Shown here: positions 12,483 to 20,066 of the stretch, piece after piece
Numbering within the stretch: position 1 is the stretch's first letter
Layout of the letters: each line of letters opens with the position of its first letter
DNA from: Xanthomonas theicola
GTDB taxonomy: Bacteria > Pseudomonadota > Gammaproteobacteria > Xanthomonadales > Xanthomonadaceae
Assembly (NCBI RefSeq): GCF_014236795.1
Contig: NZ_CP049017.1
Coordinates: forward strand, 3,450,001-3,514,000
Length of the DNA: 64,000 nucleotides
Direction of reading: 5' to 3'
Notes under the pieces: generated by a model
The model's input: the letters and a program-made list of their open reading frames with translations, nothing else
Told to the model about the DNA's origin: nothing
The model's database searches: none
Position numbers and translations under genes: made by a program

Positions 12483-14724
<2,242 letters not shown>

Positions 14725-14732
14725 TGATGAGG

Positions 14733-14883
14733 CCGGGAATGGAATGGGGAATGGGGAATCGAACATCCCATCCGCACCGACATTGCCGGCGCCACGTCCG
14801 CCACCGTGCCTGCGCCTGGGCCTGATCGAGCCGGGAGCGCGCTGTTGTTTTCCGATTCCCCATTCCCGATTCCCCATTCCCGG
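14733..14883. repeat. GGGAATGGGGAATCG inverted-repeat element between mreB and mreC
   Basis: Left arm 14733-14761 (CCGGGAATGGAATGGGGAAT and onward) and right arm 14852-14883 (CCGATTCCCCATTCCCGATT and onward) are near-inverse copies built from a GGGAAT/GGGGAATCG unit. They flank about 90 bp of unrelated sequence. The element occupies almost the entire mreB-mreC gap, so a transcript could fold a long hairpin there. The same class of repeat occurs at 30682-30812. Confidence 0.8.
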
Positions 14884-14892
14884 CTCTAGCCC

Positions 14893-16011
14893 GTGCCTCC
14901 CTACGCCGGTCCTCCCGTCACCGCCCGCCCGGGCGAAGCCGCCAGCACGCCGCGCCTGCTGGCCTACCTCGCGCTGGCGGTGGTGCTGATCGTGCTCGAT
15001 GCGCAGGCCGGCTGGCTGGCGCGCCTGCGCAGCCAGACCAACCTGCTGGTGCAGCCGGTCTGGGCGCTGGCCGGGCTGCCCGGCCGGCTCGGGTCGCAGG
15101 TGCAGGAGAACGCCGCCAGCCATGCGCAGTTGGTCAAGGAAAACCGCGCGCTGCGCAACGAACTGCTGATCGCCAAGGCGCGCCTGACCCGGCTGCAGAC
15201 CGCGGCGCTGGACAACGCGCAGTTGCGCGGGCTGCTGGGCGTGGCCGAACGCCGCGGCCTGGACGTGCAGCTGGCGCCTGTGCTGGACATCGACCTGGAC
15301 CCGACCCGGCAGCGCCTGGTGCTCGATGCCGGCAGCCGCGACGGCGTGCACGTCGGCCAGGCGGTGATCGACGCCGGCGGCCTGATGGGCCAGGTGATCG
15401 AGGTGACCCCGCTGCACTCCACGGTACTGCTGCTGACCGACCCGGACCACGCGGTGCCGGTGGTGGTGGCGCGCAACGGCGTGCGCCTGATCGTCTATGG
15501 CCGCGGCGACACCCTGGAACTGCGCAACGTGCCGCTCAGCGCCGGCGTCGAAGTCGGCGACGAGATCGTCACCTCGGGTTTGGGCGGGCGCTTCCCGGCC
15601 GGCTTCCCGGTCGGCACGGTGTCGGCGCTGCGCCCGGACGACACCCACGCCTTCCTGGTCGGCGCCCTGAAACCGGCGGCGAAGCTGGACCGGGGGCGGG
15701 ATGTGTTGCTGCTGAAGCCGGGACTCGGGACTCGGGACGCGGGACGCGGACGGCCGGGACCGGGGACCGGGGACCGGGGGCCCGGTAGCGGCAACAGCAA
15801 CGGCAATGACAGCAATGCGACGCATGGGCCGGCGCAAGGGCGTGGTTCTGTGGCCGCTGCGGCGGCAGCTTCTGCGCCGACCGCTGGCTCGGTATCCGAC
15901 CGGGCTTCCGCTGCTGACCGGGTCCCCGGTCCCCGGTCCCCGGTCCCCGGTCCCGGCCGTCCGCGTCCCGCGTCCCAAGTCCCGGCGGCTCCGCAGGAGC
16001 CGCCGCAATGA
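14893..16011 (+). CDS. mreC: Rod shape-determining protein MreC with a repeat-derived C-terminal extension
   Basis: A 372-residue protein from GTG 14893. A transmembrane helix (LLAYLALAVVLIVLDAQAGWL), a coiled coil (QLVKENRALRNELLIAKARL) and the beta-domain core (DAGSRDGVHVGQAVIDAGGL, TDPDHAVPVVVARNGVR, GDEIVTSGLGGRFPAGFPVG) are standard MreC, linking MreB to MreD and PBP2 in the periplasm. The core ends near residue 275. The remaining roughly 97 residues are Gly/Pro/Arg-rich, encoded by a palindromic repeat (15719-15984), and are not part of the family domain. The stop overlaps the mreD start. Confidence 0.93.
   Translation: MPPYAGPPVTARPGEAASTPRLLAYLALAVVLIVLDAQAGWLARLRSQTNLLVQPVWALAGLPGRLGSQVQENAASHAQLVKENRALRNELLIAKARLTRLQTAALDNAQLRGLLGVAERRGLDVQLAPVLDIDLDPTRQRLVLDAGSRDGVHVGQAVIDAGGLMGQVIEVTPLHSTVLLLTDPDHAVPVVVARNGVRLIVYGRGDTLELRNVPLSAGVEVGDEIVTSGLGGRFPAGFPVGTVSALRPDDTHAFLVGALKPAAKLDRGRDVLLLKPGLGTRDAGRGRPGPGTGDRGPGSGNSNGNDSNATHGPAQGRGSVAAAAAASAPTAGSVSDRASAADRVPGPRSPVPGPGRPRPASQVPAAPQEPPQ
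15719..15984. repeat. Palindromic GGGAC-type repeat element inside the mreC coding region
   Basis: Left arm 15719-15786, built of CGGGACTCGGGAC then GGGACCGGGGACC units, is the inverse of right arm 15918-15984, built of GGTCCCC units then GCGTCCCGCGTCCC. About 60 bp of the arms match. Between them lies roughly 130 bp encoding Asn/Ala-rich sequence. Similar units are a known intergenic repeat type in xanthomonads; here the whole element is translated in frame as the tail of MreC. Confidence 0.85.
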
Positions 16012-16493
16012 GCCGCCTGCGCAGCAAGGGCTGGGTGTTGCCGGTCAGCGTGGTCCTGGCGCTGGTACTGAGCCTGCTGCCGCTGCCGCTGGTGCTGCAG
16101 CCGCTGCGTCCATACTGGCTGGCGCTGGTGGTGGCGTACTGGGTCATCGAGACCCCGGACAAGGTCGGGCTGGGCTTCCCCTTCGCCGTCGGCGTGGTCG
16201 CCGACCTGCTGTACGGCGGGGTGCTCGGCGAGCAGGCGCTGCGGCTGGTGATCCTGAGCTTCATCCTGCAGCGCTTCCGCGCGCGCATCCGCTTCTTCCC
16301 GATGTCGCAGCAGGCGCTGGCGATCGGCGGGTTGCTGGTCAACGACCGCATCATCGCCGCAGCCGTGCACCTGGCGGTGGGCGAGCCGACGCTGCCGTGG
16401 AACTACTGGTGGGCGCCGTTGCTGGGCATGGCGCTGTGGCCGCCGCTGTTCGTGCTGCTGGACGCGCTGCGGCTGGGCCGGCGGAGCAAGTAG
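16008..16493 (+). CDS. mreD: Rod shape-determining protein MreD
   Basis: A 161-residue integral membrane protein of the elongasome. Hydrophobic segments include VLPVSVVLALVLSLLPLPLVL, PYWLALVVAYWVIETPDKVG and VGVVADLLYGGVLGEQAL, with the family-typical G-F-x-x-G-V-x-x-D-L-L-x-G pattern. The ATG at 16008 overlaps the mreC stop (ATGA), implying coupled translation. It ends one base before the mrdA start. Confidence 0.93.
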   Translation: MSRLRSKGWVLPVSVVLALVLSLLPLPLVLQPLRPYWLALVVAYWVIETPDKVGLGFPFAVGVVADLLYGGVLGEQALRLVILSFILQRFRARIRFFPMSQQALAIGGLLVNDRIIAAAVHLAVGEPTLPWNYWWAPLLGMALWPPLFVLLDALRLGRRSK

Positions 16494-16494
16494 C

Positions 16495-18558
16495 ATGGCC
16501 CTGAACGCGCCGCGCCGCATGCACAAGAACCCCCATGCCGAGGCCGAGCAGTTCCGGCGCCGCGCGGTGCTGGGCTTCCTCTGCGTGCTGAGCGCGCTGG
16601 TCGGGCTGGGCGCGTGGTACTTCAAGCTGCAGGTGCTGGACCACGACGTCTACGCGACGCGCTCGGACTCCAACCGCATCAAGCCGCGGCCGGTGGTGCC
16701 GGGGCGCGGCATGATCTACGACCGCAACGGCCGCTTGCTGGCCGAGAACGTGCCCGCGTTCCGGCTCGACGTGACCCCGGACAAAGTCGCCGACATGGAC
16801 GCGCTGCTGGCCGAACTGGGCAAGGTCATCGCGCTGTCGGCGGAGGACCTCGAGCGCTTCCAGGCCGCGCGCAAGGCCAGCCGCAGCTTCCGCCCGATCA
16901 CCCTGAAGCTGCGAGTCAGCGAGGAGGAACGCGCGCGTTTCGCGGTGGACCGCTGGCGCTTCCCCGGCGTGGAGCTGGAGCCGTACCTGACCCGCCACTA
17001 TCCCTACGCCGAGCTGTTCGCGCACATCATCGGCTACGTCGGCCGCATCGACGAGAAAGACCTGGAGATGCTCGGCGAAGGCAATGCCGCGCTGACCCAC
17101 ATCGGCAAGTCCGGGCTGGAACGCTATTACGAAGAGGCGCTGCGCGGCAGGGTCGGCTACGAGAAGGTCGAGACCAACGTGCAGGGCCGCGCGATCCGCA
17201 CCGTCGGCCGGGTGCCGGCGCAGTCCGGCGCCGACCTGCGCCTGTCCATCGACACCGACCTGCAGCGCGCGATGGTCGCCGCGTTCGGCAGCTACCAGGG
17301 CTCGGCGGTGGCGATCGATCCGCGCACCGGTGAGATCCTGGCGATGGTCAGCCTGCCGTCCTACGACCCCAATCTGTTCGTCAACGGCATTTCGCATGCC
17401 GACTTCCAGGCGCTCAACAGCGATCCGTCGCGGCCGCAGTTCAACCGGCTGGTGCTGGGCGGGGTGGCGCCGGGCTCGACCATCAAGCCGTTCATGGGCC
17501 TGGCCGGGCTGGACAGCGGCACGCGCCGTCCGCAGGACAAGATCCTGTCCACCGGCATGTTCTACCTGCCCGGGGTCAGTCGCGGCTGGGGCGACTCGCA
17601 CCGCGGCGGGCACGGCTGGACCGATCTGCGCAAGTCGATCTCGCAGTCGGTCAACACGTACTACTACAAGCTGGCCATCGACATGGGCATCACCAAGGTC
17701 GACCAGTACATGTCCCGCTACGGCTTCGGCGCGCCCACCGGCATCGACCTGATGGGCGAGAGCGGCGGCATCGTGCCGTCGCCGGCCTACAAGATGAAGA
17801 GCCGCAAGGAAGCGTGGTATCCCGGCGACACGGTCAACATCGCCATCGGCCAGGGCGACTGGAAAGTGACGCCGCTGCAACTGGTGCGCGCCGTGTCGGG
17901 CGTCGCCGACGGCCGGCTGCGCACCCCGCACCTGGTGATGGCCCGGCGCAGCGCATTCGACCAGCCGTGGGCGCCGGTGCCGCTCGGCGCGGGCAAGCCG
18001 ATCAGCGACAATCCCGACAATCTGCAGGCGGTGCGCGAGGGCATGATGGATACCATGCGCCCGGGCGGCAGCGGCTACTCGATCACCGTCGGCGCCCCAT
18101 ACCAGATGGCCGGCAAGACCGGCACCGCGCAGGTGGTCAGCCGCAAGGGTCTGGCCGCGGTGGATCCGCGCAGCCTGCCGATGCACCTGCGGCATCGGTC
18201 GCTGTTTGAAGGCTTCGCCCCGGCCCAGGCCCCGACCATCGCGCTGGCGATCGCGGTGGAGGGCGGCGGTTACGGCGCCAGTACCGCCGCGCCGATCGCG
18301 CGCAAGCTCTTCGATGCCTGGCTGCTCGGCCGCCTGCCCGCCGGCATCGAGCCGCTGGACAGCCTGCGCGGCGCTACCGCGTTCGGCAGCCAGCTGCACT
18401 ACGCCGAGGATCCGGGCTCGCGCGGCGCCGCCGACGCGATCGCGCTGGCGGCCGGTGAGTGCCCGGTGCTGATCGGCCCGGTCCAGGTGGACGCCGCCGC
18501 CGTGCCGCTGCAGGCCGCGCCGCCGCCGATTCCTGACGAGATCCCGGACGAGCGATGA
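16495..18558 (+). CDS. mrdA: Penicillin-binding protein 2 (elongation transpeptidase)
   Basis: A 687-residue class B PBP that cross-links peptidoglycan during lateral growth. A cytoplasmic N-terminus and one membrane helix (AVLGFLCVLSALVGLGAWYF) precede the dimerisation domain (PGRGMIYDRNGRLLAENVPA). The transpeptidase motifs are STIK at about residue 328 (nucleophile Ser), SVN at about 385 and KTGTAQV at about 541. The C-terminus past residue 640 is an Ala/Pro-rich tail. The stop overlaps rodA (ATGA), its glycosyltransferase partner. Confidence 0.95.
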   Translation: MALNAPRRMHKNPHAEAEQFRRRAVLGFLCVLSALVGLGAWYFKLQVLDHDVYATRSDSNRIKPRPVVPGRGMIYDRNGRLLAENVPAFRLDVTPDKVADMDALLAELGKVIALSAEDLERFQAARKASRSFRPITLKLRVSEEERARFAVDRWRFPGVELEPYLTRHYPYAELFAHIIGYVGRIDEKDLEMLGEGNAALTHIGKSGLERYYEEALRGRVGYEKVETNVQGRAIRTVGRVPAQSGADLRLSIDTDLQRAMVAAFGSYQGSAVAIDPRTGEILAMVSLPSYDPNLFVNGISHADFQALNSDPSRPQFNRLVLGGVAPGSTIKPFMGLAGLDSGTRRPQDKILSTGMFYLPGVSRGWGDSHRGGHGWTDLRKSISQSVNTYYYKLAIDMGITKVDQYMSRYGFGAPTGIDLMGESGGIVPSPAYKMKSRKEAWYPGDTVNIAIGQGDWKVTPLQLVRAVSGVADGRLRTPHLVMARRSAFDQPWAPVPLGAGKPISDNPDNLQAVREGMMDTMRPGGSGYSITVGAPYQMAGKTGTAQVVSRKGLAAVDPRSLPMHLRHRSLFEGFAPAQAPTIALAIAVEGGGYGASTAAPIARKLFDAWLLGRLPAGIEPLDSLRGATAFGSQLHYAEDPGSRGAADAIALAAGECPVLIGPVQVDAAAVPLQAAPPPIPDEIPDER

Positions 18559-19661
18559 AGGATTTCCTGCGCTGGCTGGCCGATCTCGGCGGCCGCTTCG
18601 CCCGCACCCTGGACTGGCCGCTGTGCCTGGCCCTGGCGGCGCTGATGGTGATCGGCCTGGCCGTGCTCAAGAGTGCCGGCGGCAACCATCTGATGATGGC
18701 GCAGGGCATCCGCTTCGCCACCGGCGCCGCGGCGATGTGGTGCCTGTCGCGGGTCTCGGCGCTGCGCCTGCGCGTCTGGACGCCGCTGATCTACGCGCTG
18801 TCGATGCTGCCGCTGCTAGCGGTGTTCGCGCTGGGCACCGGCAAGTATGGCCGACAGTGGCTGGATCTGAAGGTGTTCTACCTGCAGCCGGCCGAGTTGC
18901 TGAAGATCAGCATGCCGATGATGGTCGCCTGGTACCTGCACCGCGTGCCGCTGCCGCCGCGCCTGCCCACGGTGCTGGTCAGTGCGGCGATCATCGGCCT
19001 GCCGACCGTGCTGATCATGCTGCAGCCGGATTTCGGCACCGGCGTGCTGATCGCCGCCAGCGGCGGCTTCGTGCTGCTGCTGGCCGGGCTGCCGTGGTGG
19101 TGGGTGGGCATCGCGGTCGGCGGCGTCGCCGCGGCCGCGCCGGCGGCCTGGCTCTGGTTCCTGCGGCCGTACCAGAAGGACCGCATCATGATGTTCCTCG
19201 ATCCGGAGAACGACGCGCTGGGCGCGGGCTGGAACATCATCCAGTCCAAGATCGCGATCGGCTCCGGTGGCCTGCACGGCAAGGGCTGGGGCCTGGGCTC
19301 GCAGTCGCACCTGAACTTCATCCCCGAGCAGACCACCGATTTCGCGTTCTCGGTGCTCAGCGAGGAATTCGGCTGGATCGGCGTGGCCACGGTCCTGGTC
19401 CTGTACCTGGTGGTGATCGGGCGCTGCCTGTGGATCGCCGCGCAGGCGCGCGACACGTTCTCGCGGCTGCTCGCCGGCGCCATCGGCCTGGCCTTCTTCG
19501 TCTATGTGCTGGTCAACGGCGGCATGATCTCCGGGCTGCTGCCGGTGGTCGGGGTGCCGATGCCGTTGATGAGCTACGGCGGTACCTCCGCCGTGTCGCT
19601 GCTGGCCGGCCTGGGCCTGGTGATGGCGGTCAAGGCGCACCGTCCGGTGCACGGCTACTAG
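18555..19661 (+). CDS. rodA: Rod shape-determining protein RodA (SEDS glycosyltransferase)
   Basis: A 368-residue polytopic SEDS protein that polymerises lipid II with PBP2. The signature near the C-terminus, GLLPVVGVPMPLMSYGGTSA, and the internal LLIMLQPDFGTG-like stretch (VLIMLQPDFGTGVLIAASGG) are diagnostic; FIPEQTTDFAFSVLSEEFGW is also family-typical. ATG 18555 overlaps the mrdA stop. It is the last gene of the cluster. Confidence 0.95.
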   Translation: MKDFLRWLADLGGRFARTLDWPLCLALAALMVIGLAVLKSAGGNHLMMAQGIRFATGAAAMWCLSRVSALRLRVWTPLIYALSMLPLLAVFALGTGKYGRQWLDLKVFYLQPAELLKISMPMMVAWYLHRVPLPPRLPTVLVSAAIIGLPTVLIMLQPDFGTGVLIAASGGFVLLLAGLPWWWVGIAVGGVAAAAPAAWLWFLRPYQKDRIMMFLDPENDALGAGWNIIQSKIAIGSGGLHGKGWGLGSQSHLNFIPEQTTDFAFSVLSEEFGWIGVATVLVLYLVVIGRCLWIAAQARDTFSRLLAGAIGLAFFVYVLVNGGMISGLLPVVGVPMPLMSYGGTSAVSLLAGLGLVMAVKAHRPVHGY

Positions 19662-20066
19662 GGTGCGCCGGCCGTCCCGACTGTGGGCGACGCGCGTGTC
19701 CGCACGCGCCGCAGCACTGCCGTCAGCCGATGCCGCGCGGGGCGCTCTGCGCGACCGGCCGGCGCGTCGGCGGTCGTGGGCACTGGTTTAACCTCGAGCA
19801 AGCAGCCATGTGACCAACGATTGCAGCGCGTGTCGGCACGGCGGACAATTGGCGCCGATGCCAAGCCGCGGTGCCGCCTGGCGCGGCCTGTCGTGAGTGC
19901 AGGATCTGTTCCGGGCAAGCCATGCGCGGCATCCGTGCCGCCAGTCCGCGTCCGCCGTGGGAGCCAGCGCACGCCGATTCGGGTCCGCTCCAGTTCTGGC
20001 CTTAGCCCTTCTCCCGTCTGCCTGTGATTCCTGTCCGCTCGGCTGTGCCGGCATGGATGCGTGTCG
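19662..20066. other. Gap between rodA and the VirJ-like gene
   Basis: About 400 bp with no ORF showing family similarity, no intrinsic terminator with a T-run and no repeat that I can see. It may hold the promoter for the downstream pair. Confidence 0.5.

What the first reader, a model, noticed from the sequence alone, without database searches (positions are those of the whole stretch)
15719..15984. C-terminal quarter of MreC is a translated palindromic intergenic-type repeat
MreC's conserved beta core ends near residue 275. The following roughly 97 residues come entirely from an inverted-repeat element (arms 15719-15786 and 15918-15984, GGGAC/GGGGACC units), kept in frame through to an ATGA overlap with mreD. 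A repeat normally found between genes has been captured as protein sequence of an essential cell-shape gene. The mRNA could also fold a very long stem just before mreD. The repeat class is established in xanthomonads; the coding capture is read directly from this sequence.
Basis: partly seen in the sequence, partly recalled or inferred. Interest (0 to 1): 0.7.

Follow-up and report, generated by a model that had tools for sequence, protein, structure and literature searches.

The report
Palindromic repeat cassette inside MreC tail
In Xanthomonas bacteria, a DNA repeat that usually fills the gaps between genes sits inside the coding region of a cell-shape gene, where it is read as a floppy protein tail that can differ strongly between close relatives whose neighbouring genes are almost the same.

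Summary
The repeat is real. mreC (14893-16011) reads without a stop through two arms (15726-15785, 15925-15984, 95% complementary) into an ATGA overlap with mreD. The arms are G-rich heptamer repeats: a heptamer probe hits this genome 476 times, the reversed control never.

Two corrections. Only about half of the 97-residue tail is repeat. The coding tail and mreC/mreD overlap also occur in repeat-free relatives, so repeats entered an existing variable tail.

Translation is well supported: 114 of 115 distinct tails stay open to the mreD overlap (7-208 residues), and dN/dS has a median of about 0.43. Arms are present in 30 of 35 named Xanthomonas loci, in changing heptamer flavours that usually match between arms.

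New here: in two near-identical operon pairs, this cassette and the heptamer-bracketed mreB-mreC spacer are by far the most diverged stretches of the ~3 kb compared. Tail genealogy is decoupled from the coding flanks. 18 of 41 Stenotrophomonas tails carry a different repeat (SMAG-like) there. The mreD ribosome-binding site lies in a conserved hairpin.

Best reading: a repeat cassette tolerated in a disordered tail, constrained mainly to keep frame; an RNA role is a live rival. Intragenic palindromic repeats are a known kind; this is a new variant.

The parts
13678..14724 (+). mreB (upstream gene of the operon)
   Evidence: ORF ending at 14724; start placed at 13678 by script; named from operon context and recall, not from a family search
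14734..14763 (+). G-rich heptamer arm of the mreB-mreC spacer element (GGGAATG/GGGAATC flavour)
   Evidence: sequence read by eye; spacer listing
14852..14883 (+). C-rich heptamer arm of the mreB-mreC spacer element, ending 9 nt before the mreC GTG
   Evidence: sequence; pattern hits 14857-14881 on the - strand
14893..15717 (+). mreC codons 1-275, ending with the barrel core
   Evidence: Pfam MreC 130-275; TIGR00219 21-277; PDB 7eft_A match 21-274
15717..15786 (+). first arm, G-rich heptamers (GGGACTC, GGGACGC, GGGACCG), translated as ..PGLGTRDAGRGRPGPGTGDRGPG..
   Evidence: inverted repeats I1/I2; pattern hits
15787..15916 (+). non-repeat interior of the cassette, translated (G/N/S/A/P-rich)
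   Evidence: variable among relatives
15917..15986 (+). second arm, C-rich heptamers, translated as ..RVPGPRSPVPGPGRPRPASQVPA..
   Evidence: inverted repeats I1/I2; pattern hits on the - strand
15983..16005 (+). small hairpin CGGCGGCTCC-GCA-GGAGCCGCCG holding the mreD ribosome-binding site GGAG (15996-15999)
   Evidence: fold; 452 of 520 cells paired in 52 loci against 34-42% when slid
16008..16011 (+). ATGA overlap: mreC stop / mreD start
   Evidence: 114 of 115 distinct tails end in such an overlap
16008..16493 (+). mreD
   Evidence: ORF; Pfam MreD, TIGR03426

Best explanation
The end of mreC is a disordered, translated extension that is older than the repeat. In Xanthomonas it hosts one copy of the genus' abundant G-rich heptamer inverted repeat, the element that elsewhere brackets intergenic spacers gene edge to gene edge. 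SHOWN: the tail is kept in frame up to the mreD overlap; the repeat belongs to a genome-wide population; whole cassettes (arms and interior) differ between near-identical operons and follow the genealogy of the flanking coding DNA poorly. INFERRED: the repeat is tolerated here because the tail is little constrained as protein and most GGGANNN heptamers contain no stop in any frame. Cassettes turn over as units by recombination, or by hairpin-templated repair at the repeat, which would also keep the two arms matched. Selection mainly removes changes that break the frame, because MreD translation is coupled to ribosomes arriving at the ATGA through a hairpin that covers the mreD ribosome-binding site. 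Disorder of the tail is itself inferred from composition and length variation; the one structure prediction was uninformative.
For: Frame: 114 of 115 distinct tails (from 144 readable of 158 loci) end in an in-frame xTGA overlap, while 78 and 77 of 114 have stops in the other two frames. For the same 114 loci the mreB-stop to core-end distance falls in residue classes 63/37/14 mod 3, so the spacer keeps no frame. dN/dS of 18 hand-picked alignable tail pairs: median about 0.43, range 0.20-1.25. Element: 50 of 114 tails have a G arm then a C arm; own arms pair at mean score 19.7 against 14.9 +/- 0.6 when permuted between loci; majority flavour matches in 42 of 50, and on the core+mreD tree arm flavours change together, e.g. 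on average 8.7 same, 0.0 opposite and 1.3 unchanged of 10 supported independent pairs for AAT. Cassette turnover: L044/L147 differ at 4 columns in 900 nt of mreB, 3 in 822 of core and 2 in 901 of mreD+downstream, but at 46 columns of the 172-nt spacer and 240 of the tail; L014/L017 are similar. The 20 kb around L044/L147 is 98.7% identical outside the heptamer islands and 74% inside. Within groups, Spearman tail-versus-adjacent-core identity is 0.34 (18 loci) and 0.11 (33 loci), against 0.37-0.78 among coding segments. Paired arms are absent in the two genus genomes with almost no heptamers (13 and 6 hits; L020/L019). SD hairpin. Stop-free units: 57 of 64 heptamers on the G strand, 61 of 64 on the C strand.
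Against: No expression, proteomic or RNA-structure data. Decoupling could partly reflect fast saturating evolution: Stenotrophomonas tails, without heptamers, are also decoupled (0.21 over 32 chosen loci), though their heptamer-free spacer is coupled (0.75). Outside Xanthomonas, heptamer abundance does not predict arms in MreC: of 13 other family genomes with 100 or more hits, 11 gave a readable MreC tail and 2 (G020, G085) have both arms; G034 with 487, G060 with 501 and G064 with 566 hits have none. A within-genome control for arm matching is weak: own-locus pairing beats cross-locus in 26, loses in 13 and ties in 5 of 44 (some spacers wrongly delimited there). For the AC flavour the sign test is not significant (5.0/0.0/1.0 of 6, p 0.0625). 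The tree uses recombining genes. In the 20-kb comparisons other windows without heptamers also drop (80% and 90.5% in the first pair, several near 90% in the second), and two other heptamer islands of the second pair are only mildly diverged (92-95%). SD-hairpin position 5 is a G-A mismatch in 23 of 52, relatedness is not corrected for, and the hairpin region alone folds no better than 22 of 200 shuffles (z -1.35). By eye the X. albilineans-type loci lack both the arms and this hairpin, so these losses are not independent.
Confidence: 0.57

Rival explanations
1. Functional RNA element: the arms form a long stem (or the G arm a G-quadruplex) in the mre mRNA that sets stability, processing or the MreC:MreD ratio, and is kept by selection through compensatory exchange of both arms.
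For: Predicted stem z -10.9; arm flavours change together; arms in 30 of 35 named Xanthomonas loci, counting L032 and the frame-shifted L104, although heptamer-rich genomes outside the genus mostly lack them; a second palindrome class at the same junction in Stenotrophomonas; SD hairpin next to it.
Against: No paired arms in X. albilineans-type genomes, which lack the genome-wide repeats too; X. chitinilytica has none and X. populi and X. prunicola match the pattern only on the C side; matched arms also follow from whole-cassette exchange; distances of 100-500 nt between arms under translation make a stable stem doubtful (inference).
Confidence: 0.27
2. The tail is a functional protein segment (periplasmic linker or binding region) and the repeat peptides are what is selected.
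For: Open frame in 114 of 115; dN/dS mostly below 1 (17 of 18 pairs); the 367-residue MreC chain of PDB 7eft also extends about 98 residues beyond the matched core (organism not shown there).
Against: Tail length 7-208 aa, no invariant or nearly invariant residue after L274 in 29 aligned proteins, different repeat peptides in different species, dN/dS much higher than in the core.
Confidence: 0.1
3. A heptamer-based switch: unit gain or loss shifts the tail out of frame and uncouples MreD, giving reversible variation.
For: Units of 7 nt inside a coding region upstream of a gene with an overlapping start; one tail (L104/L155, X. phaseoli) reads out of frame.
Confidence: 0.03
4. The tail is not translated: mreC ends near the core in the cell and mreD is translated independently.
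For: Tail codon usage scores like non-coding (-0.75, against 0.50-0.64 for four of the genes the score was trained on), as expected of repeat DNA.
Against: No stop codon in any of the 114 in-frame tails, and the overlap is kept.
Confidence: 0.02

Closest known systems
GGGNATC G-quadruplex heptamer repeats of Xanthomonas (Rehm et al. 2015, PMC4692102; abstract, Results and Discussion read)
   Same: 7-nt G-rich units, convergent inverted pairs, spread genome-wide, next to gene ends, mostly intergenic; MreC arms of other species contain GGGAATC itself.
   Different: In this genome the MreC arms use GGGACTC/GGGACGC/GGGACCG and no GGGAATC; both arms and the interior are translated. The sections read mention neither mreC nor exchange of whole cassettes.
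Intragenic REPs (GTAG/CGTC families; PMC3733652, passages read) and SMAG of Stenotrophomonas (PMC2613905, passages read)
   Same: Palindromic intergenic repeats found as protein sequence; 18 of 41 Stenotrophomonas MreC tails hold a translated SMAG-like unit near their end.
   Different: REPs are single 20-40 bp palindromes with a tetranucleotide tag; the Xanthomonas element is a pair of heptamer arrays around a variable interior.
Rickettsia palindromic elements (RPE) in protein genes (mentioned in passages of PMC3733652; otherwise recalled)
   Same: In-frame palindromic repeat DNA inside genes.
   Different: RPEs are insertions in several unrelated proteins; here one gene junction is occupied across most of a genus and its content differs between close relatives.
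Translational coupling by ribosome-binding-site sequestration (recalled)
   Same: Hairpin over the downstream RBS and a 4-nt stop/start overlap.
   Different: Not tested experimentally here.

Membership tests
Xanthomonas GGGNATC heptamer repeats (Rehm 2015) | tandem units, perfect GGGAATC or GGGANTN, with at least one GGGAATC | tested here: not met
   MreC arms in this genome: GGGACTC, GGGACGC, GGGACCG; arms of other species and the mreB-mreC element do contain GGGAATC
Xanthomonas GGGNATC heptamer repeats (Rehm 2015) | 7-nt G-rich unit, genome-wide, often convergent inverted pairs near gene ends | tested here: met
   476 hits against 0 control; convergent pairs close to gene ends in 20 sampled stretches
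Xanthomonas GGGNATC heptamer repeats (Rehm 2015) | forms a G-quadruplex | not testable with these tools
   four G-tracts in tandem are present in the arm; no biophysics possible
GTAG REP / SMAG | short stem-loop with a GTAG tag | tested here: not met
   the arms in this window are heptamer arrays without such a unit; SMAG-like units occur in Stenotrophomonas tails instead, 18 of 41
Rickettsia palindromic elements | the same element inserted in frame in many unrelated genes | tested here: inconclusive
   of 22 co-directional genes sampled, 5 have the G arm among their last codons and 2 stop inside it; none reads more than 30 nt past it
MreC | MreC barrel core | tested here: met
   PF04085 residues 130-275, E 4.1e-41; TIGR00219 E 1.5e-49
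RBS-sequestering translational coupling | conserved pairing over the RBS next to a stop/start overlap | tested here: met
   87% of cells paired in 52 loci, 34-42% when slid; changes on both sides at positions 8 and 10; relatedness not corrected for
RBS-sequestering translational coupling | downstream translation depends on upstream translation | not testable with these tools
   needs reporters

The most novel reading that the evidence does not exclude
Heptamer inverted repeats in xanthomonads delimit exchangeable cassettes that recombination swaps or spares as units, independent of the genes on either side. One such cassette lies inside a cell-shape protein expected to be essential, so its C-terminus is rewritten wholesale between close relatives while reading frame and coupling to mreD are preserved. 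Stenotrophomonas has put another repeat family in the same slot.
Probability: 0.4. Interest if true: 0.75.

Novelty: new variant of a known kind. Interest (0 to 1): 0.56.

Why it matters
It gives a concrete, testable view of an abundant repeat of unknown function: it brackets variable islands whose history is largely decoupled from the conserved genes between them. It shows how intergenic-type repeat DNA can become part of a core cell-shape protein without breaking it, because the heptamers are mostly free of stops and the host tail is little constrained. It offers a natural system, with many species and matched near-identical operons, for separating RNA, DNA and protein roles of palindromic repeats.

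Tried and rejected
Tried without use: AlphaFold2 on a 29-sequence alignment gave mean pLDDT 48, with the barrel core itself mostly below 40, so it says nothing on tail disorder. Rfam found nothing at gathering thresholds in 13500-19800. The promoter/terminator scan of 14600-16600 found no promoter and two terminator-like sites, both on the minus strand. The within-genome cross-locus control was weak. My first mod-3 control for the mreB-mreC spacer used a wrong mreB end in some loci (37/54/23, not used; the same flaw enlarged some spacers); it was corrected (63/37/14). The column 'in frame' undercounts Xanthomonas because duplicates of earlier loci are marked false there; one search shows 34 of 35 named Xanthomonas loci in frame.

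Rows dropped: of 158 loci, 14 were not readable by the tail script (L029, L087, L110, L118, L120-L129); L118 and L120-L129 were looked at again, where L120 was misplaced. L068 ([Pseudomonas] hibiscicola) is outside the 41 Stenotrophomonas. MreC was not found in G052, G054 and G067. The genome stretches were chosen from the first plus-strand places listed (first 1.17 Mb), not at random; of 23 co-directional arms, one fell under the score cut-off.

Change of odds: on rechecking the calls I added that only 2 of 11 evaluable heptamer-rich family genomes outside Xanthomonas have the arms, and lowered the best explanation from 0.60 to 0.57 and raised the RNA rival from 0.25 to 0.27.

Considered and rejected: a newly read-through mreC stop (overlap and tail are older); an intrinsic terminator (no T run after the arms); a heptamer switch (one probably erroneous case); a GTAG REP in this genome's arms (no such unit).

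Full report
What is in the sequence. mreC starts with GTG at 14893 and runs to a TGA at 16009-16011 that overlaps the mreD ATG at 16008. The MreC fold ends at residue 274-277 by Pfam, TIGRFAM and the best PDB match, leaving a tail of about 97 residues. The tail DNA holds two arms, 15726-15785 and 15925-15984, 60 nt and 95% complementary. The arms are a mosaic of GGGACTC, GGGACGC and GGGACCG heptamers with a shared non-heptamer piece in the middle (sequence). About 43 residues between the arms, and the last 7 or so, are not arm sequence. The RNA is predicted to fold far better than shuffles (z -10.9).

The repeat family. The probe GGGANNNGGGANNNGGGA hits this genome 476 times, and the reversed control never. 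Counting the window's genome, 18 of 20 genus genomes have 476-926 hits; two small ones (3.5 and 3.7 Mb) have 6 and 13. The family matches the heptamer repeats of Rehm et al. 2015 (PMC4692102, abstract, Results and Discussion read), with one strict criterion unmet in this copy (no GGGAATC). That paper reports 89-93% intergenic location, 70 and 75 convergent pairs in two species and no known function.

Where the arms usually sit. In 20 stretches of this genome, taken from the first listed plus-strand places, I found 40 arms. Of 22 with a co-directional gene (above a codon-score cut-off) on the G-arm's outer side, the stop lies 2-20 nt before the arm in 15, inside it in 2, 14-24 nt after it in 5 and further on in none. 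Of 16 C arms listed, 14 end 5-20 nt from the next gene boundary and 2 at 66-67 nt (genes called by a simple codon score, not annotation). So the element tends to bracket intergenic spacers edge to edge, and short translation of the first arm is not rare. Full translation of both arms and the interior, as in mreC, was not seen among these 22.

Is the tail coding? From 158 MreC loci, 144 were readable by my script and gave 115 distinct tails. 114 stay open to an in-frame overlap with mreD, with tails of 7 to 208 residues, while 78 and 77 of 114 have stops in the other two frames. Over 18 hand-picked alignable pairs the tail dN/dS median is about 0.43 (0.20-1.25), against 0-0.24 for the core. The tail is therefore very probably translated, and weakly constrained.

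Which came first? Stenotrophomonas has a P/A-rich tail to the same overlap: 41 of 41 readable named loci in frame, none with both heptamer arms. In 33 further loci of the family and order, the mreD start lies at offset -1 from the mreC stop in 24, with tails of 0-85 aa in the 32 that were placed properly (L120 was misplaced; the other offsets may partly come from taking the first possible start). The tail and overlap look older; the repeat is an invader of coding DNA.

Distribution. Of 35 named Xanthomonas loci, 28 have both arms by a strict pattern. L032 has them by alignment score (as L014), and L104 has the second arm beyond its shifted stop, making 30. X. sp. GPE 39, X. albilineans and X. 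chitinilytica lack paired arms; X. populi and X. prunicola match only on the C side. Heptamer abundance alone does not decide it: of 13 family genomes outside Xanthomonas with 100 or more hits, 11 gave a readable MreC tail, and only G020 (L022) and G085 (L111), the two closest in MreC (83-84% identity), have both arms.

Arms change together. Majority flavour (AAT, ATT or AC) agrees in 42 of 50 tails. Own-arm pairing scores 19.7 on average, against 14.9 +/- 0.6 when arms are permuted between loci, maximum 17.4 in 10,000 permutations. Permutation ignores relatedness; on a tree of core plus mreD, supported independent pairs give on average 8.7 same, 0.0 opposite and 1.3 unchanged of 10 for AAT, 7.6/0.0/1.4 of 9 for ATT and 5.0/0.0/1.0 of 6 for AC, the last not significant. 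A within-genome comparison with the mreB-mreC element is weaker: 26 for, 13 against and 5 ties of 44.

Cassette turnover. L044 and L147 differ at 4 columns in 900 nt of mreB, 3 in 822 of core and 2 in 901 of mreD-and-downstream. They also differ at 46 columns of the 172-nt mreB-mreC spacer (starting 7 nt after the mreB stop) and at 240 columns of the tail (from 29 nt after the core to 20 nt before mreD). L014 and L017 show 1/900, 14/822 and 8/901 against 24 columns of a 169-nt spacer and 133 of a 263-nt tail. Over 20 kb the first pair is 98.7% identical outside the heptamer islands and 74% inside; a heptamer-free window at 80%, one at 90.5% and a gap of about 2 kb also occur. The second pair is mostly 95-100% over about 17 kb with several windows near 90%, then unrelated; its other two islands are only mildly diverged (windows at 92-95%), so not every island behaves alike. 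The tail of L147 is 89% identical to that of X. bromi L077, whose core+mreD is 94%, so it looks like an existing allele and not fresh mutation. Nearest neighbours by core and by tail disagree in 47 of 53 loci (two of these are from other genera, and noise adds to the count). Spearman tail against adjacent core is 0.34 (18 loci of the window's genus group) and 0.11 (33 other Xanthomonas loci); coding segments correlate at 0.37-0.78. As a control, the Stenotrophomonas spacer follows the core (0.75), but the Stenotrophomonas tail does not (0.21; 32 chosen loci); hence tail decoupling is not specific to heptamers, while spacer decoupling (0.18 and 0.03 in Xanthomonas) tracks them.

A second repeat in the same slot. 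In Stenotrophomonas, 18 of 41 named tails carry a SMAG-like palindrome (consensus GTAGTGCCGGCCGCTGGCCGGCA, PMC2613905, passages read) in the last 75 nt, 14 of them ending exactly 29 nt before the end of the gene, 15 of 18 with the GTAG tag. One S. maltophilia genome has 378 copies of the core with at most one mismatch. Intragenic REPs are already described (PMC3733652, passages read; 'mrec' does not occur in its main text).

The junction with mreD. Of 53 loci tested (arm-bearing ones plus L014, L038, L047; two are from other genera), 52 have a GGAG site, starting 12 nt (49) or 9 nt (3) before the mreD start, in a stem of up to 10 pairs; L037 has none. 452 of 520 cells pair, against 34-42% when slid; positions 8 and 10 change on both sides, but position 5 is a G-A mismatch in 23. 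This fits translational coupling, which was not tested.

Mechanism, with steps marked. Shown: translation frame, repeat identity, cassette-wise differences, decoupling. Inferred: exchange by recombination or repair at the palindrome, tolerance by a disordered tail, and selection for frame through MreD coupling. Which side moved, cassette or flanks, cannot be told. Heptamers suit this because 57 of 64 GGGANNN units have no stop on the G strand and 61 of 64 none on the C strand when in tandem.

Literature. Seven searches of the open-licence PMC library were run; only one search used the word MreC, and it listed two papers, neither opened, neither about this by title. No listing showed a paper on repeats in the MreC tail. 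Most subscription papers are not held, so this is weak evidence of absence.

Noticed in passing
14734-14883: The mreB-mreC spacer carries its own heptamer inverted repeat of another flavour (GGGAATG/GGGAATC), ending 9 nt before the mreC GTG; by eye no clear ribosome-binding site precedes mreC.
   Followed up: partly
G001, G016 (L020, L019): Two small-genome Xanthomonas (X. albilineans type) have almost no heptamer repeats genome-wide (13 and 6 hits against 476-926), so whatever makes or keeps them may be missing there.
   Followed up: no
L159, L165, L168, L171, L175: Five genes of this genome have the first heptamer arm among their last codons, with the stop 14-24 nt after it.
   Followed up: partly
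Stenotrophomonas loci, e.g. L078, L080, L065: A translated SMAG-like REP lies near the end of MreC, most often ending 29 nt before the end of the gene.
   Followed up: yes
   Followed up: partly
G075: In this family genome the reversed control pattern is far commoner (185) than the heptamer probe (25), which hints at a different G-rich heptamer class.
   Followed up: no
G034 (L023), G060 (L121), G064 (L129): Family genomes with 487, 501 and 566 heptamer hits but no arms in MreC; in G034 the hits are strongly strand-asymmetric (88/399).
   Followed up: no
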